Positions 1 through 57,830 of a DNA stretch of 59,531 nt are shown piece after piece. Location of the stretch: positions 1 to 59,531 of IMG/VR virus record IMGVR_UViG_3300033148_008638, one strand, 5' to 3'. Each line of letters opens with the position of its first letter. Position 1 is the stretch's first letter. A program made the position numbers and the translations under genes. The notes beneath the pieces were generated by a model, which searched no databases, was not told the origin of the DNA, and worked only from the letters and a program-made list of their open reading frames with translations. The stretch is from a virus.

Positions 1-190
1 GTTCAAGTGAGTCCGCCAGCCTTTTTTTAATTTCTTTGGTGATTGTAATTAACTCTAACGTATCTGATTCTGTTTCTTTCTTTTGAGGACAAAACCAATA
101 TTCAAGGTCTGGGATCTCTTCCTGCATCTGCTTAAAAATTCTTTTTATTTCTTTAACATTCTCTTGTGTTAGGTTTCTTTGTTCTGCCAT
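1..190 (-). CDS. Hypothetical protein, 3' end outside window
   Basis: Reading leftward from an ATG at 190, an open frame runs off the window edge and gives about 63 residues starting MAEQRNLTQENVKEIKRIF. The visible part is charged and helical (KEIKRIFKQMQEEI), with a short LEYWFCP segment. AAGGAAC lies just upstream as a ribosome binding site. It is the last visible gene of the leftward block. No family is recognised and the C-terminus is not seen. Confidence 0.6.
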   Translation of the reverse strand, partial: MAEQRNLTQENVKEIKRIFKQMQEEIPDLEYWFCPQKKETESDTLELITITKEIKKRLADSLE

Positions 191-8062: not shown

Positions 8063-9251
8063 TATTTATTTCCTTTATAAATTCTTGTACCTCTGGTTTT
8101 TTCCTCTCACTATCCCAAAGAGATAAATATTTACCTGCATCAATACCTTTAGGTAAATTATTCCTTTGATATTTCAGTGTAGCTAATAATTCCTCAAGCC
8201 ATACAAAATGTGATGATACTTTTAGTTCTGGATACTTAAAGTAACTATCATCAACATGTTCTTTAATACTATATATATCTTGTTTCACAAGCTCAAATGG
8301 AAAACCAAAATAGAGACCATCTCTATTTAGTAAATTATCCTTTGTTAGAGGTTTCCAATTATTAAGTGTTAATGTGTTGTTATACCCATTAGCAAACCTC
8401 ACAAAGGGTTGGGCTTCTGGGAGAAACTGCCAGAAACCTTTCTTTTCATCTATTCCCCGTTTACTAAGTCCTCTCTCTAAGAACTGTGTAAGGGTCCATT
8501 TATAGCTAAAATAATGAGCATTACTTTTTAATACCTGAGAGTAATTATGAATAGCTTTTATTAATTGTCTTACAGAAATAAAAGTCAAGGTCTTTTTTAT
8601 TTTATTTTCGATACTAGTATTTAATTTTTGATGTACTATTATTTCTTGTTTATTCCAGTAATTAAAAATTTCGACTACAATGTTTCTAGAAGTGTTTTTA
8701 ATATTGTCTTTAATATTGTCTTTAATATTGTCTTTAATATTGTCTTTAGGACTTGGCTGAGCTATACCAGTTGTAGTTTTCAGAGGATTTGAGTTATCAT
8801 TTTTTACTTTTGAGTTATCATTTTTTACTTTTGAGTTATCATTTTTTACTTTTGAGTTATCATTTTTTACTTTTGAGTTATCATTTTTGTTGAAATTTGA
8901 GTTATCATTTTTTACTTTTGAGTTATCATTTTTTATAGGGGATTTTATCAATTTCTCATACTCTTTCTGTATTTTGAAAAGTAGATTACCTTCACTATTT
9001 TTTTGAATAGTAATCATATTTCTATTGGATAATTTTTTTATATCTCTTGAAATATTTGATAATTTTTTTTCAGTTAACTCTTGTATCTCTTTTAAAGATA
9101 CTACTTTTTCTGTTTTATTCCAGCCATATGTTTTTCTAAGGATTGCCCACCAAATCTGCCCCATAGTTTTCGGTAACCCTTCTCTGCAGAAAGCTTCTAA
9201 TAATTCATCAGCTATTTTTGTGTAGCCATCTTCAACTTGTGGTGACGCCAT
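8055..9251 (-). CDS. Replication initiator-like protein (lambda O type), gene carries iteron repeats
   Basis: A 398-residue protein. The N-terminus (DGYTKIADELLEAFC, AILRKTYGWNKTEK, LSNISRDIKKLSNRNMI) matches the winged-helix N-terminal domain of phage replication protein O. The middle consists of KNDNSKV repeats (about residues 104-155) encoded by 21-bp DNA repeats, then a KDNI repeat tract. The C-terminal 200 residues probably interact with the helicase. As in lambda, origin iterons may lie inside the initiator gene. It sits just upstream of the primase-helicase, as expected for an initiator. Confidence 0.8.
   Translation of the reverse strand: MASPQVEDGYTKIADELLEAFCREGLPKTMGQIWWAILRKTYGWNKTEKVVSLKEIQELTEKKLSNISRDIKKLSNRNMITIQKNSEGNLLFKIQKEYEKLIKSPIKNDNSKVKNDNSNFNKNDNSKVKNDNSKVKNDNSKVKNDNSKVKNDNSNPLKTTTGIAQPSPKDNIKDNIKDNIKDNIKNTSRNIVVEIFNYWNKQEIIVHQKLNTSIENKIKKTLTFISVRQLIKAIHNYSQVLKSNAHYFSYKWTLTQFLERGLSKRGIDEKKGFWQFLPEAQPFVRFANGYNNTLTLNNWKPLTKDNLLNRDGLYFGFPFELVKQDIYSIKEHVDDSYFKYPELKVSSHFVWLEELLATLKYQRNNLPKGIDAGKYLSLWDSERKKPEVQEFIKEINNE
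8698..8750. repeat. Tandem 12-bp AT-rich repeat inside the initiator gene
   Basis: About four copies of TTAATATTGTCT in tandem, encoding KDNI repeats on the minus strand. The tract is very AT-rich and lies about 40 bases from the 21-bp iteron array. It is a candidate DNA-unwinding element of the origin. Confidence 0.8.
8791..8940. repeat. Seven 21-bp iterons inside the initiator gene, probable replication origin
   Basis: Copies of GAGTTATCATTTTTT begin at 8791, 8812, 8833, 8854, 8875, 8899 and 8920. The unit is 21 bp, with one 24-bp interval. They encode the KNDNSKV repeats. An 18-base exact match (GAGTTATCATTTTTTACT) lies in intergenic DNA at 25929-25946, which argues that the DNA sequence itself is selected. 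Initiator genes with internal iterons are known from lambdoid phages; origin function here is inferred. Confidence 0.8.
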
Positions 9252-31110: not shown

Positions 31111-31738
31111 AGATGGGGGCAACCATATGAAGCACTCTAATGAATACCTTACAGAAGCAATGAGTATTTTGACTGAGCTTAAAGCATCTGATATTGAAAA
31201 AATGGTAGATGAAATATCTAATATAAAAAGGGGCAATGGAAGATTATTTTGCTTAGGTGTTGGTGGAAATGCCAGCACTGCATCTCATGCTGTGAATGAT
31301 TTCAGAAAGATTTGTAATATAGAGTCCTACTGCCCTACAGATAATGTAACAGAACTTACTGCAATTACTAATGACCGTGGATGGAAATACTCTTTTAGAG
31401 ATTGGCTCATTGGGAGTAAACTCTCTTCAAAAGATGGTGTCTTTGTATTTTCTGTTGGGGGTGGGGACGCACTAAAAGGTATCAGTTCAAATATAGTTTT
31501 TGCATTACGATATACGCTGAGTGTTGGTGCTAAAATACTAGGTATAGTCGGAAGGGACGGGGGATATACAGCTAAAGTAGCAGATGCATGTATAATCATT
31601 CCAGTTGATAACAAAGAGGGAATAACTCCCCATACTGAATCATTCCAGGTGTTGCTGCTACATCTTATAGTTTCCCATCCTAGACTAAAAGAAATACAAA
31701 TGACATGGGAGTATGTAGATGGAGTAAAAGATGAATGA
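31097..31738 (+). CDS. gmhA: Sedoheptulose 7-phosphate isomerase (GmhA-like SIS protein)
   Basis: A 213-residue SIS-domain protein. GRLFCLGVGGNASTASHAVNDFRK matches the GmhA phosphate-binding pattern (GNG-S-A-H---D), GVFVFSVGGGD the second loop, and IPVDNKEGITPHTESFQVLLLHLI the C-terminal helix with catalytic histidine. It converts sedoheptulose 7-phosphate to heptose 7-phosphate. AGGAGCAAGAAA supports the start at 31097; an internal ATG at 31127 is an alternative. An endonuclease gene is wedged directly after it. Confidence 0.88.
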   Translation: MNKIEDGGNHMKHSNEYLTEAMSILTELKASDIEKMVDEISNIKRGNGRLFCLGVGGNASTASHAVNDFRKICNIESYCPTDNVTELTAITNDRGWKYSFRDWLIGSKLSSKDGVFVFSVGGGDALKGISSNIVFALRYTLSVGAKILGIVGRDGGYTAKVADACIIIPVDNKEGITPHTESFQVLLLHLIVSHPRLKEIQMTWEYVDGVKDE

Positions 31739-32552
31739 AGAAACTGAACAAATATTAATAGGTAGTCTCTTGGGAGACGGGTATTTATTTTTTGCAGATA
31801 GAAGTAAGAATGCATCTTTTAGAGAAGATCATAGTCTTAAGCAAAAAGATTATCTTTTATGGAAAAGAAACTTTTTAGAAGATTTTGATCCAATAATGAA
31901 GACTCGTGAAAGATTTGATAGTAGAACAAATAGACATTATTATCAGGTAGGCTTACGAACTAAAGTGCATCCTTTATTAACTGAGTATTATAGATTGTTC
32001 TACCCAAATGGTAAGAAAGTCTTGACTAATAAAATAATAATGGATAAAATTAAACCATTAGCTCTTGCTGTGTGGTATTGTGATGATGGTTGTTTTAATT
32101 ATACATATTGGGACGGAACAATTGCTACTTGTATATCTTATGATGATAATGCTTTTTTATCAGAGGAGCTAGAGAAGAAGTTTGGTATTAAATGTGCAAT
32201 ACATAGAAGTGGGAAAAACTATCAGTTATACCTTGGTGTAAAAGAAATTGATAAATTTTTGGGTTTAATTAAAGACTATGTACCTAAATGTATGTCATAT
32301 AAATTGGGGCTGCTTGTCGAAGAAAATATTGAAAAGTTAGAAGAAAGAAGGGCAATAAAAAGAGAAAAAGACAGAATTAGCTATAAAAAAAGAATGAGCG
32401 ATCCAGAAAAACGTAAATTATTTTATATCCAACATAAAAAAGCTTTGCAGAAAAGATTACAGAATCCAGAATATAAGAAAAGATATAATGAATATCAGAA
32501 ATTACAAAAAAGGAAGCAGCATGAAAGAAAAAAACAGAGCAATCTTTCTTGA
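31731..32552 (+). CDS. Free-standing LAGLIDADG homing endonuclease
   Basis: A 273-residue protein with two LAGLIDADG helices, LIGSLLGDGYL (residues 8-18) and LALAVWYCDDGCF near 103-115, the acidic residue of each giving the metal sites. Its C-terminal 70 residues form basic repeats (YKKRMSDPEKRKLFY, LQKRLQNPEYKKRYNEY), probable DNA-contact modules. No intron core surrounds it: it overlaps gmhA by 8 bases and the phosphatase gene by 32, so it is a free-standing mobile gene inserted in the heptose operon. Sequence relation to the intron-3 endonuclease is only at the motif level. Confidence 0.88.
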   Translation: MNEETEQILIGSLLGDGYLFFADRSKNASFREDHSLKQKDYLLWKRNFLEDFDPIMKTRERFDSRTNRHYYQVGLRTKVHPLLTEYYRLFYPNGKKVLTNKIIMDKIKPLALAVWYCDDGCFNYTYWDGTIATCISYDDNAFLSEELEKKFGIKCAIHRSGKNYQLYLGVKEIDKFLGLIKDYVPKCMSYKLGLLVEENIEKLEERRAIKREKDRISYKKRMSDPEKRKLFYIQHKKALQKRLQNPEYKKRYNEYQKLQKRKQHERKKQSNLS

Positions 32553-38881: not shown

Positions 38882-40870
38882 ATGAAAAAGCATAAAAGCA
38901 AAATATTTATAGCATTGACGATGTGTCTTATCTTCCTTTTATTCTCTGCACCTATATTTATGTGTGAATTTTCTACAGGACAGACTAAAGAAGATATTAA
39001 GTTAGCTGCCCGGAGAGCATCTGTCCAACCTGTTTTTTATATCCCTGTTATAAAAGCTACTTTTACTAATCCTATAGACGTAGACGAAAAGCTAACAAAA
39101 GAAGATATAGAAAATCTGCTTGAAGAAAAGATCAAAATTGCTATTGAAAAAGAAAAAGAAAAAGAAACTAGGAACAAATATAATGAATATCTTACCAATA
39201 TTGACGTGTGGGGTTATGAAGCTGTCTCTCAAACTCATATTCCACTTGGTGCTCTTGCCCCTAAATGGGCTAAATTTCCAGAAAGAGTTCTAGTGGTATA
39301 TAAAACAGAGAAAAAAGAAATAACTGCATGGGAAAAAGAATACGAAAAAGATATTCTGGCTGTTTCTGAAACAGCAAATGTTTCTCCCAGCCAAGCAAAG
39401 GAAATAATTAATAGATTGCATGCAGAGGGGTATTCTATATCAAAGGAAAAATTGAAAGAAGCTGAAAGTGTCGAGTTGTTATGGTTTGAAGATGGTTGGA
39501 ATACTAAATACCCCCAGACCTTAAAATGGTCTGTGGAAACACTAGGAACTAAAAATAATATTATCATTGGGTATGATTCAAGGGGTATACTTGAAATTCA
39601 GCCAGTTGCAGATGATGCTAGACTTCACGTTGTTGCTGGATATTTTGATCTCAAAGATGAATATAAGCCAAAATCTGACGAGGTTAAAAAATTAGAAAGC
39701 CAGATTGAAATGCTACAAGAGGACGTAAAAGACAAGCAAATCATAATAGATGCTGAGACAAAGAAAAAAGAAACTAAGCGGGATATTAGTAATGCAACTT
39801 ATAATGATGTTCGATATGGAACTGTTAAGCTAGAAGAGTTTTGGATGATGTCGGCTGCTTCTGGAGTATTTCTAGGAAATATGAAAGTTACCGATAAATT
39901 TTGGGGGTTTCAATCTAGTTGGGGTTCATATAAACAAGTTATTGGCAACGAAGAGAAAGGAGTTATTTTAACTAATGCTCATGTAGCTAATATGGCATTA
40001 AGTTTTAAGGTCTATGTCTCTGAAGATAAAGAAGAAATGTGGGTAGTTCTCCCTGGAGTTCCATATATAAGATATACTCAAGATACAGATCTTTTAGGAT
40101 CCCCTGCTCAAGTATTGTGGATTGAGGGAGCACCAGTTAGTAGTCTAGATTTTGATTGTGCTCTTATGGTTACTACTAAAGTTCCTGAGTATGATAAATA
40201 TAAGGTAGCTTTTGGTAATAGTGATAATGTAAAAGAGGGTGAAAAAGTTATCATGGTTGGGAATCCAACATACATGCAGAAGTTCTTAACTGAAGGAGTG
40301 ATTACTAATAAATCCTACAATCTTTTCAAATCTCTTATAGGAGGATCTATTTTATGGGAAGGAAAGATTCCTCATAGAATGTACAGAACTATGATTAATA
40401 GTGATTTATGGTTTGATACCCCTATTGGAATAGGTGGCACAAGTGGTTCTGGAGTTTGGGCATTAGAAGGGAGTGAAAAAGGTAAAATGATAGCCTTACA
40501 TAATATGGGATTGAGGCAACCACTCTCTATTGCAAGTGCTATTTATGATAAGAAAGATATTAATGTTGATTCAATTTCTTTATCTGTATCTCCTAATAGT
40601 TTGCTAAAAAATATATTACGGAAACATGGTTCCAAATTCTTTGAACACTATCCTTTTAAGGAAGCAAAATTTAGGTTTAGAATGGATTCATTCATTAAAA
40701 AAGAACCTATTTTTGGTACTGCAATGAAAGATTTGGGTCTATGGGTGAATATTGCCGGTATGAATGCTGGAGTCCCAATTAATAAAGTAAAACAGTATCT
40801 ACAAGAAAGGGGAATAAGTCCAGAGGATTTTAATTGGGAAGAATTACCTAAGAAATACTGGAAGAATTAG
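38882..40870 (+). CDS. Exported trypsin-like serine protease in prohead-protease position
   Basis: A 662-residue protein. Residues about 8-27 form a signal peptide or membrane anchor (KIFIALTMCLIFLLFSAPIF). A helical region with coiled coil (260-300) follows. The C-terminal half is a trypsin-like (S1/HtrA) protease: H367 in ILTNAHVA, D423 or D425 in LDFDCALM, and S521 in GGTSGSGVW. Portal-adjacent proteases of tailed phages normally mature the capsid but are not exported. Either the phage uses a trypsin-fold protease or the gene is a host-surface function placed in the head cluster. No PDZ domain is evident. Confidence 0.85.
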   Translation: MKKHKSKIFIALTMCLIFLLFSAPIFMCEFSTGQTKEDIKLAARRASVQPVFYIPVIKATFTNPIDVDEKLTKEDIENLLEEKIKIAIEKEKEKETRNKYNEYLTNIDVWGYEAVSQTHIPLGALAPKWAKFPERVLVVYKTEKKEITAWEKEYEKDILAVSETANVSPSQAKEIINRLHAEGYSISKEKLKEAESVELLWFEDGWNTKYPQTLKWSVETLGTKNNIIIGYDSRGILEIQPVADDARLHVVAGYFDLKDEYKPKSDEVKKLESQIEMLQEDVKDKQIIIDAETKKKETKRDISNATYNDVRYGTVKLEEFWMMSAASGVFLGNMKVTDKFWGFQSSWGSYKQVIGNEEKGVILTNAHVANMALSFKVYVSEDKEEMWVVLPGVPYIRYTQDTDLLGSPAQVLWIEGAPVSSLDFDCALMVTTKVPEYDKYKVAFGNSDNVKEGEKVIMVGNPTYMQKFLTEGVITNKSYNLFKSLIGGSILWEGKIPHRMYRTMINSDLWFDTPIGIGGTSGSGVWALEGSEKGKMIALHNMGLRQPLSIASAIYDKKDINVDSISLSVSPNSLLKNILRKHGSKFFEHYPFKEAKFRFRMDSFIKKEPIFGTAMKDLGLWVNIAGMNAGVPINKVKQYLQERGISPEDFNWEELPKKYWKN

Positions 40871-42940: not shown

Positions 42941-45689
42941 ATGGCAGGTGTAAGGAGATCTTCGGAGGTCTCACTATGCTGAGAGGTGTAGTTAAATACG
43001 GGGTGAATTGCTGGGATCTCCCCCACAAGGGGACAATCAGCAGCCAAGCTTGGAAAGTAATTTCCTTGAAGGTTCAGAGACTAACTCTCGACTCCTACCG
43101 CATGGCGGGGAGAGTAATAGAGACACGAGTGCCCTGCATCTCTATGAGATGAAGATATAGTCCGAGCTTATAGGTAACTATAAGAAACAAAGTTTAAATG
43201 ACTTTGTGATAACAACTCTGCAGAGTTCACGGAAGCCATGAAAGCCCAGTCCTACGATCAATAACGGTCGCTCTACTTTGAGAAAAGTAGATGATAATGG
43301 GATGAATTGCTGGGATCTCCCCCACAAGGGGACAATCAGCAGCCAAGCTTGGAAAGTAATTTCCTTGAAGGTTCAGAGACTAACTCTCGACTCCTACCGC
43401 AGCATGGCGGGGAGAGTAATAGAGACACGAGCATCCCACATCCTATAAATAGGATGAAGATATAGTCCAAGCTTATAGGTAACTATAAGAAACAAAGTTT
43501 AAATGACTTTGTGATAATAAAACTGTGGTTCTGGGAGAATTATGATGAGCTTCCTCCAAGATATGAAGATATATTTGAAGTAGTAGAGTCCGATAAAGCA
43601 TAGATAAATATGTGCGTAGTTAGCTAAATTCGGTGAAGACCTCTGGAAGGTAATACCGAGCAAACCTTTGAAAGGGTGCGTAGAGATTATGAATCTAAAT
43701 AAGTTAAATAGAAATGAAATAAAAAGTGCTATAATTGGAATGGTAATTGGTGATGGTAATCTAACTAAGAGGTGTCGAAATTGTAATGCTTATTTCCAGA
43801 TGAGTCATTGTGCCAGACAGTTAGAATATATGAATTGGAAGATAAATATAATACATACGATAACTGGTGGAAGCACTCAAGAAACACAAAGAACACTAAA
43901 TGGTAAATTATTTAGAGGATACCATTTCAGTTCACAAAGACACCCAACATTTACTAAACTATATTCAAGATTTTATCACAATGGTGTAAAGGTTCTTGAT
44001 GAGTATATAGTAAAAATGATAACTCCATTAGCTTTAGCCATTATCTATATGGACGATGGTACATTTGCTAAACATCACTTAACTGGGAGTAATGGAAAAG
44101 ACAGTTTTTTTCTTTGCATGCAGAATTTTGACTATGCTAATCAAATGTTACTTAGAAAAAGTCTTAAGATAAACTTTGGTTTAGAATGGAATATAAACAA
44201 AGCAAATAAGACAAATTATGGCACATATAATTACAGGATGAGATTATCTAGTCGCTTCAATGATAAGTTTATAGATATAATTAAACCATATGTATTAGAT
44301 GTCCCCTGTATGCATTATAAATTAGGTTCACACGCTAACACATCGAGTAATTCGATGTTGATATAGTCCGACCTCTATGGCGACATAGAGAGCTTGGCAG
44401 AAATGACCAAGCCCACTTTTAATAAAGTGAGTAACAAACGTGATGAGAAATTTACCTCAGCGATCGGTCTTGGTGATCTATTGGAAAAACCAGAGGGTAC
44501 AGACCTTCAGACGGATAAGCCGATAGAGAGTTACACCGTAGTTTGTAAGAACAGAACTTGGGGTAGAAAGACACAGTTTACCTATGAGACAGTGCAGGAT
44601 GCGCAGTCAGTACAAAATCTGCTTTCTGATACTGTAGGGTCGTGGGGTAAGTCTTTACCAAGAACTAAAGATAGGTGGTATGCCAACTTTTTCAACTACG
44701 GTGCTGTTACCGCTGGAAATGCTATTTATAACAATGGCATTACTGGTGTTGTGGATGATCCATCTGGTAATTTGATTTATGATGGTCAGCCTTGGTTTGT
44801 TGCCAATGATGGGCATAAAGACAAAGCTGGTAACGGTTACAGTAACTATGCTGCAAGCCGTTCGTTGACTCATAGCAATCTTCAAACTACTTATATTACA
44901 TACACCACAACTAATGCTAAAGATGAGAAAGGTAATAATATAGAGTTAATACCTGATACATTGTTAATTCCTCCCGCTCTTAGGTTTACAGCTCAGGTAA
45001 TATTAAATACCACACTGTTACCAGGGAGTATGGATCTTAATAAGGGTTCCCTTATTCTGAAAAGAATATTGAAAAACGGGGTGAATTGCTGGAACACCTT
45101 GGCTAATAAAGCCAAGGCAATCAGCAGCCAAGCTTGGAAAGTAATAGTAATGACGACACGAGTGCCCTGCATCTCTATGAGATGAAGATATAGTCCGAGC
45201 TTATAGGTAACTATAAGAAATAGAATTTAAATGATTCTATGATAACAAAACTGAATGATACCAATGTATTAGCTGCTATTGTCAATCCAGTCCAATGGGC
45301 CAATCTAACTGATACAGATGGATGGTTCCTTGGTAAAGCCAAGAAGGGCCTTATGGCTACTGATAGGCTTGATGTGATGATCGACTTTTGGCAGGATCTT
45401 AATAAGGGTTCCCTTATTCTGAAAAGAATATTGAAAAACGGGGTGAATTGCTGGAACACCTTGGCTAATAAAGCCAAGGCAATCAGCAGCCAAGCTTGGA
45501 AAGTAATATCTCTATGAGATGAAGATATAGTCCGAGCTATATAGTAATATATAGAAATAGAATTTAAATGATTCTATGATAACAAAACTGGAAACAAATC
45601 TCGATTATTACGCAAGTATCGTCAGCCGTTTTGGCGGTGTGGTCACAAACTTCCGATATTGGTTTGCGTGTAATATTGCTAGTAGTTGA
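42941..45689 (+). CDS. Major capsid protein (Mu gpT-like), interrupted by five group I introns
   Basis: Proposed exons: 42941-42959, 43221-43258, 43526-43601, 44398-45035, 45254-45397 and 45591-45689. They total 1014 bases and encode 337 residues with no internal stop. Junctions restore codons: TCA (Ser) at exons 1/2 and 3/4, clean codon borders at the others. The product starts MAGVRRS-EFTEAMKAQSYD-WFWENYDELPPRYEDIF and contains DRWYANFFNYG, DTLLIPPALRFTA, LLPGSMD-NDTNVL, FWQD-ETNLDYYAS and ends FGGVVTNFRYWFACNIASS, a Mu gpT-like capsid pattern. Every 5' exon ends in U and pairs with an intron guide through a U.G pair. GGAGGTGAAAAG precedes the ATG. Splicing is inferred, not measured. Confidence 0.88.
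42960..43220 (+). ncRNA. Group I intron 1 in the capsid gene
   Basis: 261 bases. P1: exon GAGAT pairs with GTCTC, with U.G at the splice site. Core: AATTGCTGGGA (P), AATCAGCAGCC (Q), GTTCAGAGACTAACTC (R) and GAAGATATAGTCC (S); P7 is GACTA/TAGTC. P8 is CATCTC/GAGATG, P9 TTATAG-GTAA-CTATAA with a GNRA loop, and P9.1 ACAAAGT/ACTTTGT. The last base is G after CT. No endonuclease gene. Sequence is nearly identical to intron 2 through much of the core. Confidence 0.9.
43259..43525 (+). ncRNA. Group I intron 2 in the capsid gene
   Basis: 267 bases. P1: exon CGAT with GTCG, U.G at the splice site. P2 is CTACTTT/AAAGTAG. P3 TGGGATG/CATCCCA is fully paired, whereas intron 1 has wobble pairs here, which is covariation evidence. 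P, Q, R and S elements are as in intron 1, with identical P5 CCCC/GGGG. Separated from intron 1 by an exon of only 38 bases. No endonuclease gene. Confidence 0.9.
43602..44397 (+). ncRNA. Group I intron 3 in the capsid gene, carries a homing endonuclease gene
   Basis: 796 bases, of a different type from introns 1, 2, 4 and 5. P1: exon GCAT with GTGC, U.G at the splice site. Core: AATTCGGTGAAG (P), GGTAATACCGAGC (Q), GTGCGTAGAGATTAT (R) at 43676-43690 and GATATAGTCC (S) near 44360; P7 GATTAT/ATAGTC. The endonuclease gene fills the loop between R and S (P8). P9 is CTCTATG-GCGA-CATAGAG. The last base is the second G of CTTGG. Confidence 0.88.
43689..44366 (+). CDS. LAGLIDADG homing endonuclease within intron 3
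   Basis: A 225-residue protein from ATG 43689. Two LAGLIDADG helices: AIIGMVIGDGNL near 12-23 and ALAIIYMDDGTF near 113-124. Conserved YHFSSQRHPTFTKLYSRFYHNGVKVLD and a C-terminal YVLDVPCMHYKLG resemble PF03161-type endonucleases. The start codon overlaps the R element and the stop codon overlaps the S element, so translation and folding of the intron core must compete. It would cleave intronless capsid genes near codon 45 to spread the intron. Confidence 0.9.
   Translation: MNLNKLNRNEIKSAIIGMVIGDGNLTKRCRNCNAYFQMSHCARQLEYMNWKINIIHTITGGSTQETQRTLNGKLFRGYHFSSQRHPTFTKLYSRFYHNGVKVLDEYIVKMITPLALAIIYMDDGTFAKHHLTGSNGKDSFFLCMQNFDYANQMLLRKSLKINFGLEWNINKANKTNYGTYNYRMRLSSRFNDKFIDIIKPYVLDVPCMHYKLGSHANTSSNSMLI
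45036..45253 (+). ncRNA. Group I intron 4 in the capsid gene, lacks the P7 5' strand
   Basis: 218 bases. P1: exon GGAT with GTTCC (one bulged U). P5 is CCTTGGCT/AGCCAAGG. P, Q, P3', P8 and S elements are present as in intron 1, but the region from TTCC to GAGAGTAAT, which holds R and P7.1 in introns 1 and 2, is absent. P9.1 ATAGAAT/ATTCTAT covaries with introns 1 and 2. Removal is nevertheless required to keep the capsid frame. Confidence 0.75.
45398..45590 (+). ncRNA. Group I intron 5 in the capsid gene, lacks P7 5' strand and P3'
   Basis: 193 bases. The first 112 bases or so are identical to intron 4, then the sequence jumps directly from GTAAT to P8 (ATCTCTATGAGAT), losing R, P7.1 and P3'. 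S is present. P9 is CTATATA-GTAA-TATATAG, with base changes on both sides relative to intron 4, so this end is not a simple copy. Needs read-level confirmation. Confidence 0.7.
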
Positions 45690-56889: not shown

Positions 56890-57830
56890 TAGAGATTAAA
56901 AAGTATTCTAGTAAAAGAAAAGAAGAATGGGATAATTTCATAAGAGGATCAAAAAATGGTGTTTTCTTTTTTCTTAGAGACTATGTTGAATATCATTCAC
57001 ATAGATTTACTGATAGCTCATTAATGTTTTACAAAGATGGAAAGTTAAGAGCAGTACTGCCTGCAAATATAAATGATGATGTGTTAATAAGTCATGGTGG
57101 TTTATCATTTGGTGGACTTATACTTGATACAAAAGCAACAATTATTTTAGTAATCTCTTTATTTGATGAATTAAGAAAGTTTGCTGCTAGTAATAGAATT
57201 AAAGAAATAATCTATAAGAGTGTCCCATATATTTATCATATCCATCCTGCTGATGAAGACTTATATGCAATGTACCTCCTAGGTGCTAAAATTATTAAGA
57301 GGAATCCCTCTACAGTTATTAGGATGAGGGATAAAATTAACTTCCAAACTTTACGTAAGAGATCCATTAAAAAAGCTATAAATAATAAATTAGTTGTAGA
57401 TATAAGTAGTGATTATAACAGTTTTTGGGATATTTTAATAGATAACTTGAGGAGTAAGTATAATATAAGCCCAGTGCATTCTATAGAAGAAATTAAGTAT
57501 CTTGTAACAAAATTTCCAGCAAATATAAAACTTTTTGTTTCCTCAAAAAATAAACAAATAATAGCAGGTGTGGTACTATATGAGAATAAATCTGTAGTTA
57601 GAGCACAATATATAGCAGCATCTCCACACGGTAAGAAAATTGGAGCTATAGATATTATCTTTGACTATTTAATTAAAAAATATTCAAGTATAGACTATTT
57701 TGATTTTGGTGTATCTACTGAAACTATTAAAGTAGACGGGAAGTATCTTTTAAATGAAGGGTTAGTTTTTCAGAAGGAAGGTTTTGGGGGCAGAACAGTT
57801 GTCTATGATACCTATAAAATTACTATATAA
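56886..57830 (+). CDS. FemAB/GNAT-like acyltransferase
   Basis: A 314-residue protein. KEEWDNFIRGSKNGVFFFLRDYVEYHSHRF at the N-terminus and IIAGVVLYENKSVVRAQYIAASPHGKKIGAIDIIFDYLIKKY near the C-terminus match GNAT-fold proteins of polysaccharide clusters (FemAB-related). It would transfer an acyl or aminoacyl group to a sugar. Confidence 0.75.
   Translation: MIEIKKYSSKRKEEWDNFIRGSKNGVFFFLRDYVEYHSHRFTDSSLMFYKDGKLRAVLPANINDDVLISHGGLSFGGLILDTKATIILVISLFDELRKFAASNRIKEIIYKSVPYIYHIHPADEDLYAMYLLGAKIIKRNPSTVIRMRDKINFQTLRKRSIKKAINNKLVVDISSDYNSFWDILIDNLRSKYNISPVHSIEEIKYLVTKFPANIKLFVSSKNKQIIAGVVLYENKSVVRAQYIAASPHGKKIGAIDIIFDYLIKKYSSIDYFDFGVSTETIKVDGKYLLNEGLVFQKEGFGGRTVVYDTYKITI

What the first reader, a model, noticed from the sequence alone, without database searches (positions are those of the whole stretch)
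42941..45689. Major capsid gene split by five group I introns
The capsid protein is only readable after removal of five introns. Proposed junctions give 337 residues without a stop. Every 5' exon ends in U, and each junction has a P1 guide with a U.G pair: GAGAT/GTCTC, CGAT/GTCG, GCAT/GTGC, GGAT/GTTCC twice. Every intron ends in G. P, Q and S elements are visible in all. Three introns fall within the first 46 codons and the second exon is only 38 bases. Single introns in phage genes are known; five in one essential structural gene would be exceptional.
Basis: partly seen in the sequence, partly recalled or inferred. Interest (0 to 1): 0.93.

Follow-up and report, generated by a model that had tools for sequence, protein, structure and literature searches.

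The report
Phage capsid gene with five introns
In this uncultured bacterial virus the gene for the main shell protein is cut by five stretches of group I intron sequence; three look like complete self-removing introns, two lack an essential piece (lost in assembly or really deleted), and the same gene is repeatedly invaded in related viruses.

Summary
Of 26 related major capsid protein (MCP) genes from IMG/VR, 17 are uninterrupted over their length; codon alignment with three of them confirms all five insertion points. The 3' border of intron 3 lies 45 nt further on (44442/44443), so the protein has 322 residues, not 337. Introns 1, 2 and 3 are complete group I introns; 3 carries a LAGLIDADG endonuclease gene. 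Introns 4 and 5 are group I sequence but lack the R element (5' strand of P7, the guanosine site); 5 also lacks the 3' strand of P3. As printed they cannot splice themselves. No assessable relative (118) lacks R. The missing stretch is a near-identical repeat and contigs of this phage break or jump at introns, so loss in assembly seems somewhat likelier than real deletion; reads would decide. Eight relatives also carry MCP introns (up to four): ten sites in all, six within the first 57 nt. Introns 1, 2, 4, 5 and a tail-gene intron are close copies that multiplied within this genome. Multi-intron phage genes, including a capsid gene, are already reported: this is a new, unusually rich member of a known kind.

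The parts
42941..42959 (+). MCP exon 1 (19 nt, ends GGAGAT)
   Evidence: codon alignment with uninterrupted MCPs
42960..43220 (+). Intron 1, complete group I intron, no ORF; R element at 43073-43083, S at 43152-43163
   Evidence: RF00028 88.8 bits E 1.1e-22
43221..43258 (+). MCP exon 2 (38 nt)
43259..43525 (+). Intron 2, complete group I intron, no ORF, 88% identical to intron 1; R at 43372-43382, S at 43457-43468
   Evidence: RF00028 85.3 bits
43526..43601 (+). MCP exon 3
43602..44442 (+). Intron 3 with corrected 3' border; different intron lineage, same site (CDS nt 133) as introns in L174 and L176
   Evidence: RF00028 25.9 bits E 7.6e-4; homologue L174 40.3 bits
43689..44366 (+). LAGLIDADG homing endonuclease ORF inside intron 3 (225 aa)
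   Evidence: PF03161 E 1.4e-34
44443..45035 (+). MCP exon 4 (ends ATGGAT)
45036..45253 (+). Intron 4 sequence; group I intron lacking R (P7 5' strand); break at 45145/45146
   Evidence: RF00028 77 bits; no P7 complement between Q and S; 28/28 shared flanks at the break
45254..45397 (+). MCP exon 5 (144 nt, ends CAGGAT)
45398..45590 (+). Intron 5 sequence; lacks R and the 3' strand of P3; break at 45507/45508; its 5' half is identical to that of intron 4
   Evidence: RF00028 56.1 bits
45591..45689 (+). MCP exon 6 with stop codon

Best explanation
The MCP gene of this phage is a hot spot for group I introns, and five insertions interrupt it. Introns 1 and 2 are short, complete, ORF-less ribozymes that fold in the late transcript, bind guanosine in P7, cut after the U of the U.G pair in P1 and join the exons. 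Intron 3 is a separate lineage that carries a LAGLIDADG endonuclease and sits at a site also occupied in two relatives, as expected of endonuclease-driven homing. Introns 1, 2, 4, 5 and a tail-gene intron are close copies of one another that spread within this genome, perhaps by reverse splicing into sites ending in GAU and by exchange between copies. Introns 4 and 5, as printed, lack the R segment and cannot splice in cis; it is somewhat more likely that the assembly lost the repeated core than that the phage did. Shown: insertions, borders, core elements, kinship, missing R. Inferred: splicing, way of spread, assembly cause.
For: Borders fixed by uninterrupted relatives. MCP identity: PF25209 E 8e-10, downstream of portal and scaffold. 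Group I core by covariance model. Eight of 26 relatives carry MCP introns; with the window 20 introns at 10 sites, all restoring a full MCP frame. R is present in all 118 assessable relatives of this core type (112 next to P6, 6 behind a P6 ORF; 2 more not assessable) and in every genuine short-core intron found; it is absent only in introns 4 and 5. Nearest kin of introns 1, 2 and 4 are copies in the same phage. Assembly signs: the intron 4 break has 28 shared nt on both sides with an intact copy, intron 5 has 28 and 31; contig G002 jumps from MCP intron 1 into a tail-gene intron and so lacks most of MCP; contig G003 begins inside an intron; neither break was found in another viral contig.
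Against: No RNA data: splicing of none of the five is shown. The breaks in introns 4 and 5 create words that no known intact copy contains, so a simple repeat collapse does not by itself make them; the 28/28 coincidence could be chance, and intron 5 is 28/31. The identical 5' halves of introns 4 and 5 also fit duplication of an already deleted copy.
Confidence: 0.6

Rival explanations
1. Introns 4 and 5 are really deleted in the phage DNA. They are decayed copies that cannot splice, so this genome makes no full capsid protein and represents a defective or passing variant, or a recent mutation.
For: The broken sequences are in the record with novel junctions; identical 115-nt 5' tracts suggest a deleted copy that was itself copied. 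Deletion derivatives of a phage group I intron are named in a cited title (Foley 2000, in the reference list of PMC11878797).
Against: Exons 5 and 6 are intact and conserved; loss of the capsid C terminus should be lethal; no other R-less intron was found.
Confidence: 0.27
2. Introns 4 and 5 are real, lack R, and are still removed because an intact intron RNA of the same phage acts on them in trans.
For: Intact close copies exist in the same transcript and in a tail gene; trans-acting group I ribozymes that remove introns have been engineered (PMC4094466 abstract).
Against: I know of no natural case in which only R and part of P3 come in trans; the short P7 and P3 pairings would be weak; no independent copies of the R-less form.
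Confidence: 0.05
3. The region is a chimeric or dead gene and the phage carries an uninterrupted MCP elsewhere.
For: G002 looks like a chimera at an intron repeat.
Against: No MCP match by BLASTN in the 57-kb partner contig G003; multi-intron MCPs recur in independent records whose introns are not near-identical repeats.
Confidence: 0.05

Closest known systems
MCP gene of crAss-like Zeta phage cMAG OLRF01000054 (PMC7886860)
   Same: Phage MCP ORF split into five fragments; three of the four inserts carry group I intron domains
   Different: Four inserts, recognised there by protein domains; here five, four of them short and ORF-less. Kinship of the two capsid proteins was not tested
Twort orf142 (tail tube) and Bastillevirinae polymerase and terminase genes (PMC11878797)
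   Same: Several group I introns in one phage gene; splicing shown, with exon skipping
   Different: Up to three introns; other genes
LittleE capsid and BAKA/Optimus tail gene introns, Cluster J mycobacteriophages (PMC3706429)
   Same: Introns in a capsid and a tail gene, sharing a 156-bp tract at 98% identity; RT-PCR proof
   Different: One intron per gene
Faustovirus MCP gene (PMC9116030)
   Same: Capsid gene with many group I introns (13-18), some with homing endonucleases; splice junctions seen in RNA
   Different: Giant virus of amoebae with an unrelated kind of capsid protein

Membership tests
Group I intron (introns 1, 2) | Covariance model match over full length | tested here: met
   RF00028 88.8 and 85.3 bits, model 1-253
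Group I intron (introns 1, 2) | P7 with R and S strands (guanosine site) | tested here: met
   GACTA at 43079 and 43378 pairs with TAGTC
Group I intron (intron 3) | Covariance model above cut-off | tested here: inconclusive
   25.9 bits, cut-off 50, E 7.6e-4; ORF-reduced homologue 40.3 bits, E 4e-9
Group I intron (intron 3) | R and S strands able to form P7 | tested here: met
   GATTA at 43685 complements TAGTC; conserved in five homologues
Group I intron (introns 4, 5) | Covariance model above cut-off | tested here: met
   77.0 and 56.1 bits
Group I intron (introns 4, 5) | R element / 5' strand of P7 | tested here: not met
   no complement of S between Q and S; gap in the alignment
Group I intron (intron 5) | Both strands of P3 | tested here: not met
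   3' strand absent
Group I intron (all five) | U at 5' exon end, G at intron end, P1 with U.G | tested here: met
   P1 of 4-5 bp, weak individually
Group I intron (all five) | Self-splicing of the RNA | not testable with these tools
   no RNA data
LAGLIDADG homing endonuclease (intron 3) | LAGLIDADG_2 domain | tested here: met
   PF03161 E 1.4e-34
Tailed-phage major capsid protein | Capsid family match and head-gene context | tested here: met
   PF25209 E 8e-10; portal and scaffold genes upstream

The most novel reading that the evidence does not exclude
Introns 4 and 5 are real, lack their own guanosine site, and are spliced out with the help of intact sister introns in the same transcript: a non-autonomous group I intron that depends on its relatives.
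Probability: 0.05. Interest if true: 0.93.

Novelty: new member of a known kind. Interest (0 to 1): 0.52.

Why it matters
It gives a natural series (0 to 5 introns in one essential gene, ten sites, 27 phages) in which intron gain, homing and spread can be traced against uninterrupted alleles. If the short copies spread inside one gene within one genome, this is a good place to test reverse splicing. It also warns that repeated introns break short-read assemblies and gene calls. If the R-less forms were real and spliced, it would be a new kind of dependence between introns.

Tried and rejected
No MCP relative in genome contigs, so the host is unknown; reference phages hold only about 25% identical MCPs. 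Relatives cannot be drawn for a virus record. A search for other short-core introns gave only R-bearing ones and chance hits. Ribosomal bypassing of introns 4 and 5 was considered and dropped: take-off and landing codons do not match and the gaps are near 200 nt (inference). Exon skipping (exon 4 to 6, in frame) would still need an R element, and none lies in that stretch. A single k-mer size that explains all the distances (28, 28, 28, 31, 31) was not found, so the assembly reading stays a probability.

Full report
What was checked. The window is a 59.5-kb virus record from IMG/VR. The spliced reading at the stated junctions is open for 337 codons. Rfam finds a group I intron above the cut-off at four of the five places and a weak match at the fifth, which carries a long ORF. 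The product matches Phage_capsid_4 (E 8e-10) and lies downstream of portal and scaffold genes.

Borders. Uninterrupted MCP genes in L006, L137 and L138 align codon by codon with the spliced window gene and confirm all five insertion points. The homologous introns of L174 and L176 end at the same place. The GGAT before introns 4 and 5 belongs to the exons: uninterrupted relatives have GGAT at the first place (three of three) and GGAT or GGAC at the second (two and one).

Core elements. Introns 1 and 2 have all core strands, with GACTA (R) complementary to TAGTC (S). Intron 3 has R as GATTA, touching the start of a 225-aa LAGLIDADG ORF (PF03161, E 1.4e-34); its relative at the same site in L174, which has lost most of the ORF, scores 40.3 bits. 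Introns 4 and 5 have P1, P4, P5, P8, P9 and S, but between GGAAAGTAAT and S they lack about 51 and about 76 nt relative to intact copies (counted by hand on the alignment). That removes R, and in intron 5 also the 3' strand of P3. No other stretch between Q and S can replace R. Group I catalysis depends on P7 (established knowledge), so these two cannot splice themselves as printed.

Is R ever missing? Among 120 distinct introns of this core type in IMG/VR, 112 have R beside P6, 6 have it behind an ORF in P6, and 2 could not be assessed within the fetched DNA. A search aimed at short cores returned genuine introns that all keep R, plus chance hits. The break itself occurs in no other viral contig searched; records very near the window may be left out of that search.

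Real or assembly? Signs of assembly trouble: contig G002 (99.2% identical to the window over 7.6 kb) passes from MCP intron 1 straight into a tail-gene intron; contig G003, whose end is identical to the first 114 bases of the window, begins inside an intron, 31 bases before that intron diverges from the next one (counted by hand); the break in intron 4 is flanked by exactly 28 bases shared with an intact copy on each side, that in intron 5 by 28 and 31. Against this, both breaks create words found in no known intact copy, which a plain repeat collapse does not make. I put assembly at roughly 6 in 10.

Kinship and hot spot. Of 26 relatives, eight carry MCP introns: L174 four, L176 three, L156 and L173 two, L139, L160 and L164 one, L177 at least one (cut contig). 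Seventeen are uninterrupted over their length and L178 over the part held. With the window this makes 20 introns at ten sites (window CDS nt 11, 19, 25, 38, 52, 57, 133, 726, 870, 937), all restoring the frame. Six sites lie in the first 57 nt (binomial 7e-6, taking sites as independent and uniformly placed). Site 133 is shared by three phages and holds the LAGLIDADG lineage. Introns 1, 2 and 4 are closest to copies in the same phage, including one in a gene that matches major tail protein phrog_807. Intron 5 looks mosaic: its 5' half is identical to intron 4, its 3' half 91% identical to the site-937 intron of L156.

How it most likely works. Introns 1-3 self-splice from the late mRNA; intron 3 homes by its endonuclease; the short introns have multiplied locally. 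Reverse splicing is one possible route, since all four short-intron sites here and the tail-gene site end in GAU opposite the guide; this is inference, and P1 pairings alone are not significant. Introns 4 and 5 either have a full core that the record lost, or are dead.

Compared with what is known. Multi-intron phage genes and intron-split phage capsid genes are reported (PMC11878797; PMC7886860; PMC3706429), and amoebal giant viruses go much further (PMC9116030). Five would exceed the counts I found for a phage gene, but I could not survey the literature fully, and two of the five are in doubt as working introns.

Noticed in passing
G003 (L014:1-500): A tail gene (phrog_807) has a 262-nt group I intron after codon 6, and the contig starts inside another intron at the end of the preceding gene: more structural genes of this phage are split.
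   Followed up: partly
G002 (L013:7340-7700): Contig joins MCP intron 1 to the tail-gene intron, losing the MCP; probably a chimera at the intron repeat, or a real recombinant.
   Followed up: partly
window 1-114 and G003 56900-57013: 114 identical bases: the two contigs look like neighbouring parts of one phage genome of at least about 116 kb.
   Followed up: partly
window 31731-32552: Free-standing LAGLIDADG_2 gene (PF03161 E 1.6e-38) downstream of a SIS-like gene.
   Followed up: partly
window 38882-40870: Trypsin-like protease domain (PF13365) between portal and scaffold genes; may be the capsid maturation protease.
   Followed up: no
window 8779-8956: Tandem repeats of about 21 bp, TTTGAGTTATCATTTTTTACT.
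   Followed up: no
L153:1973-2164: HEARO RNA (RF02033) about 2 kb upstream of an uninterrupted MCP relative.
   Followed up: no
L164:4974-5041, L173:5003-5072, L169:7375-7445 and 8722-8790: int-alpA RNAs (RF02996) downstream of the MCP gene in several relatives.
   Followed up: no
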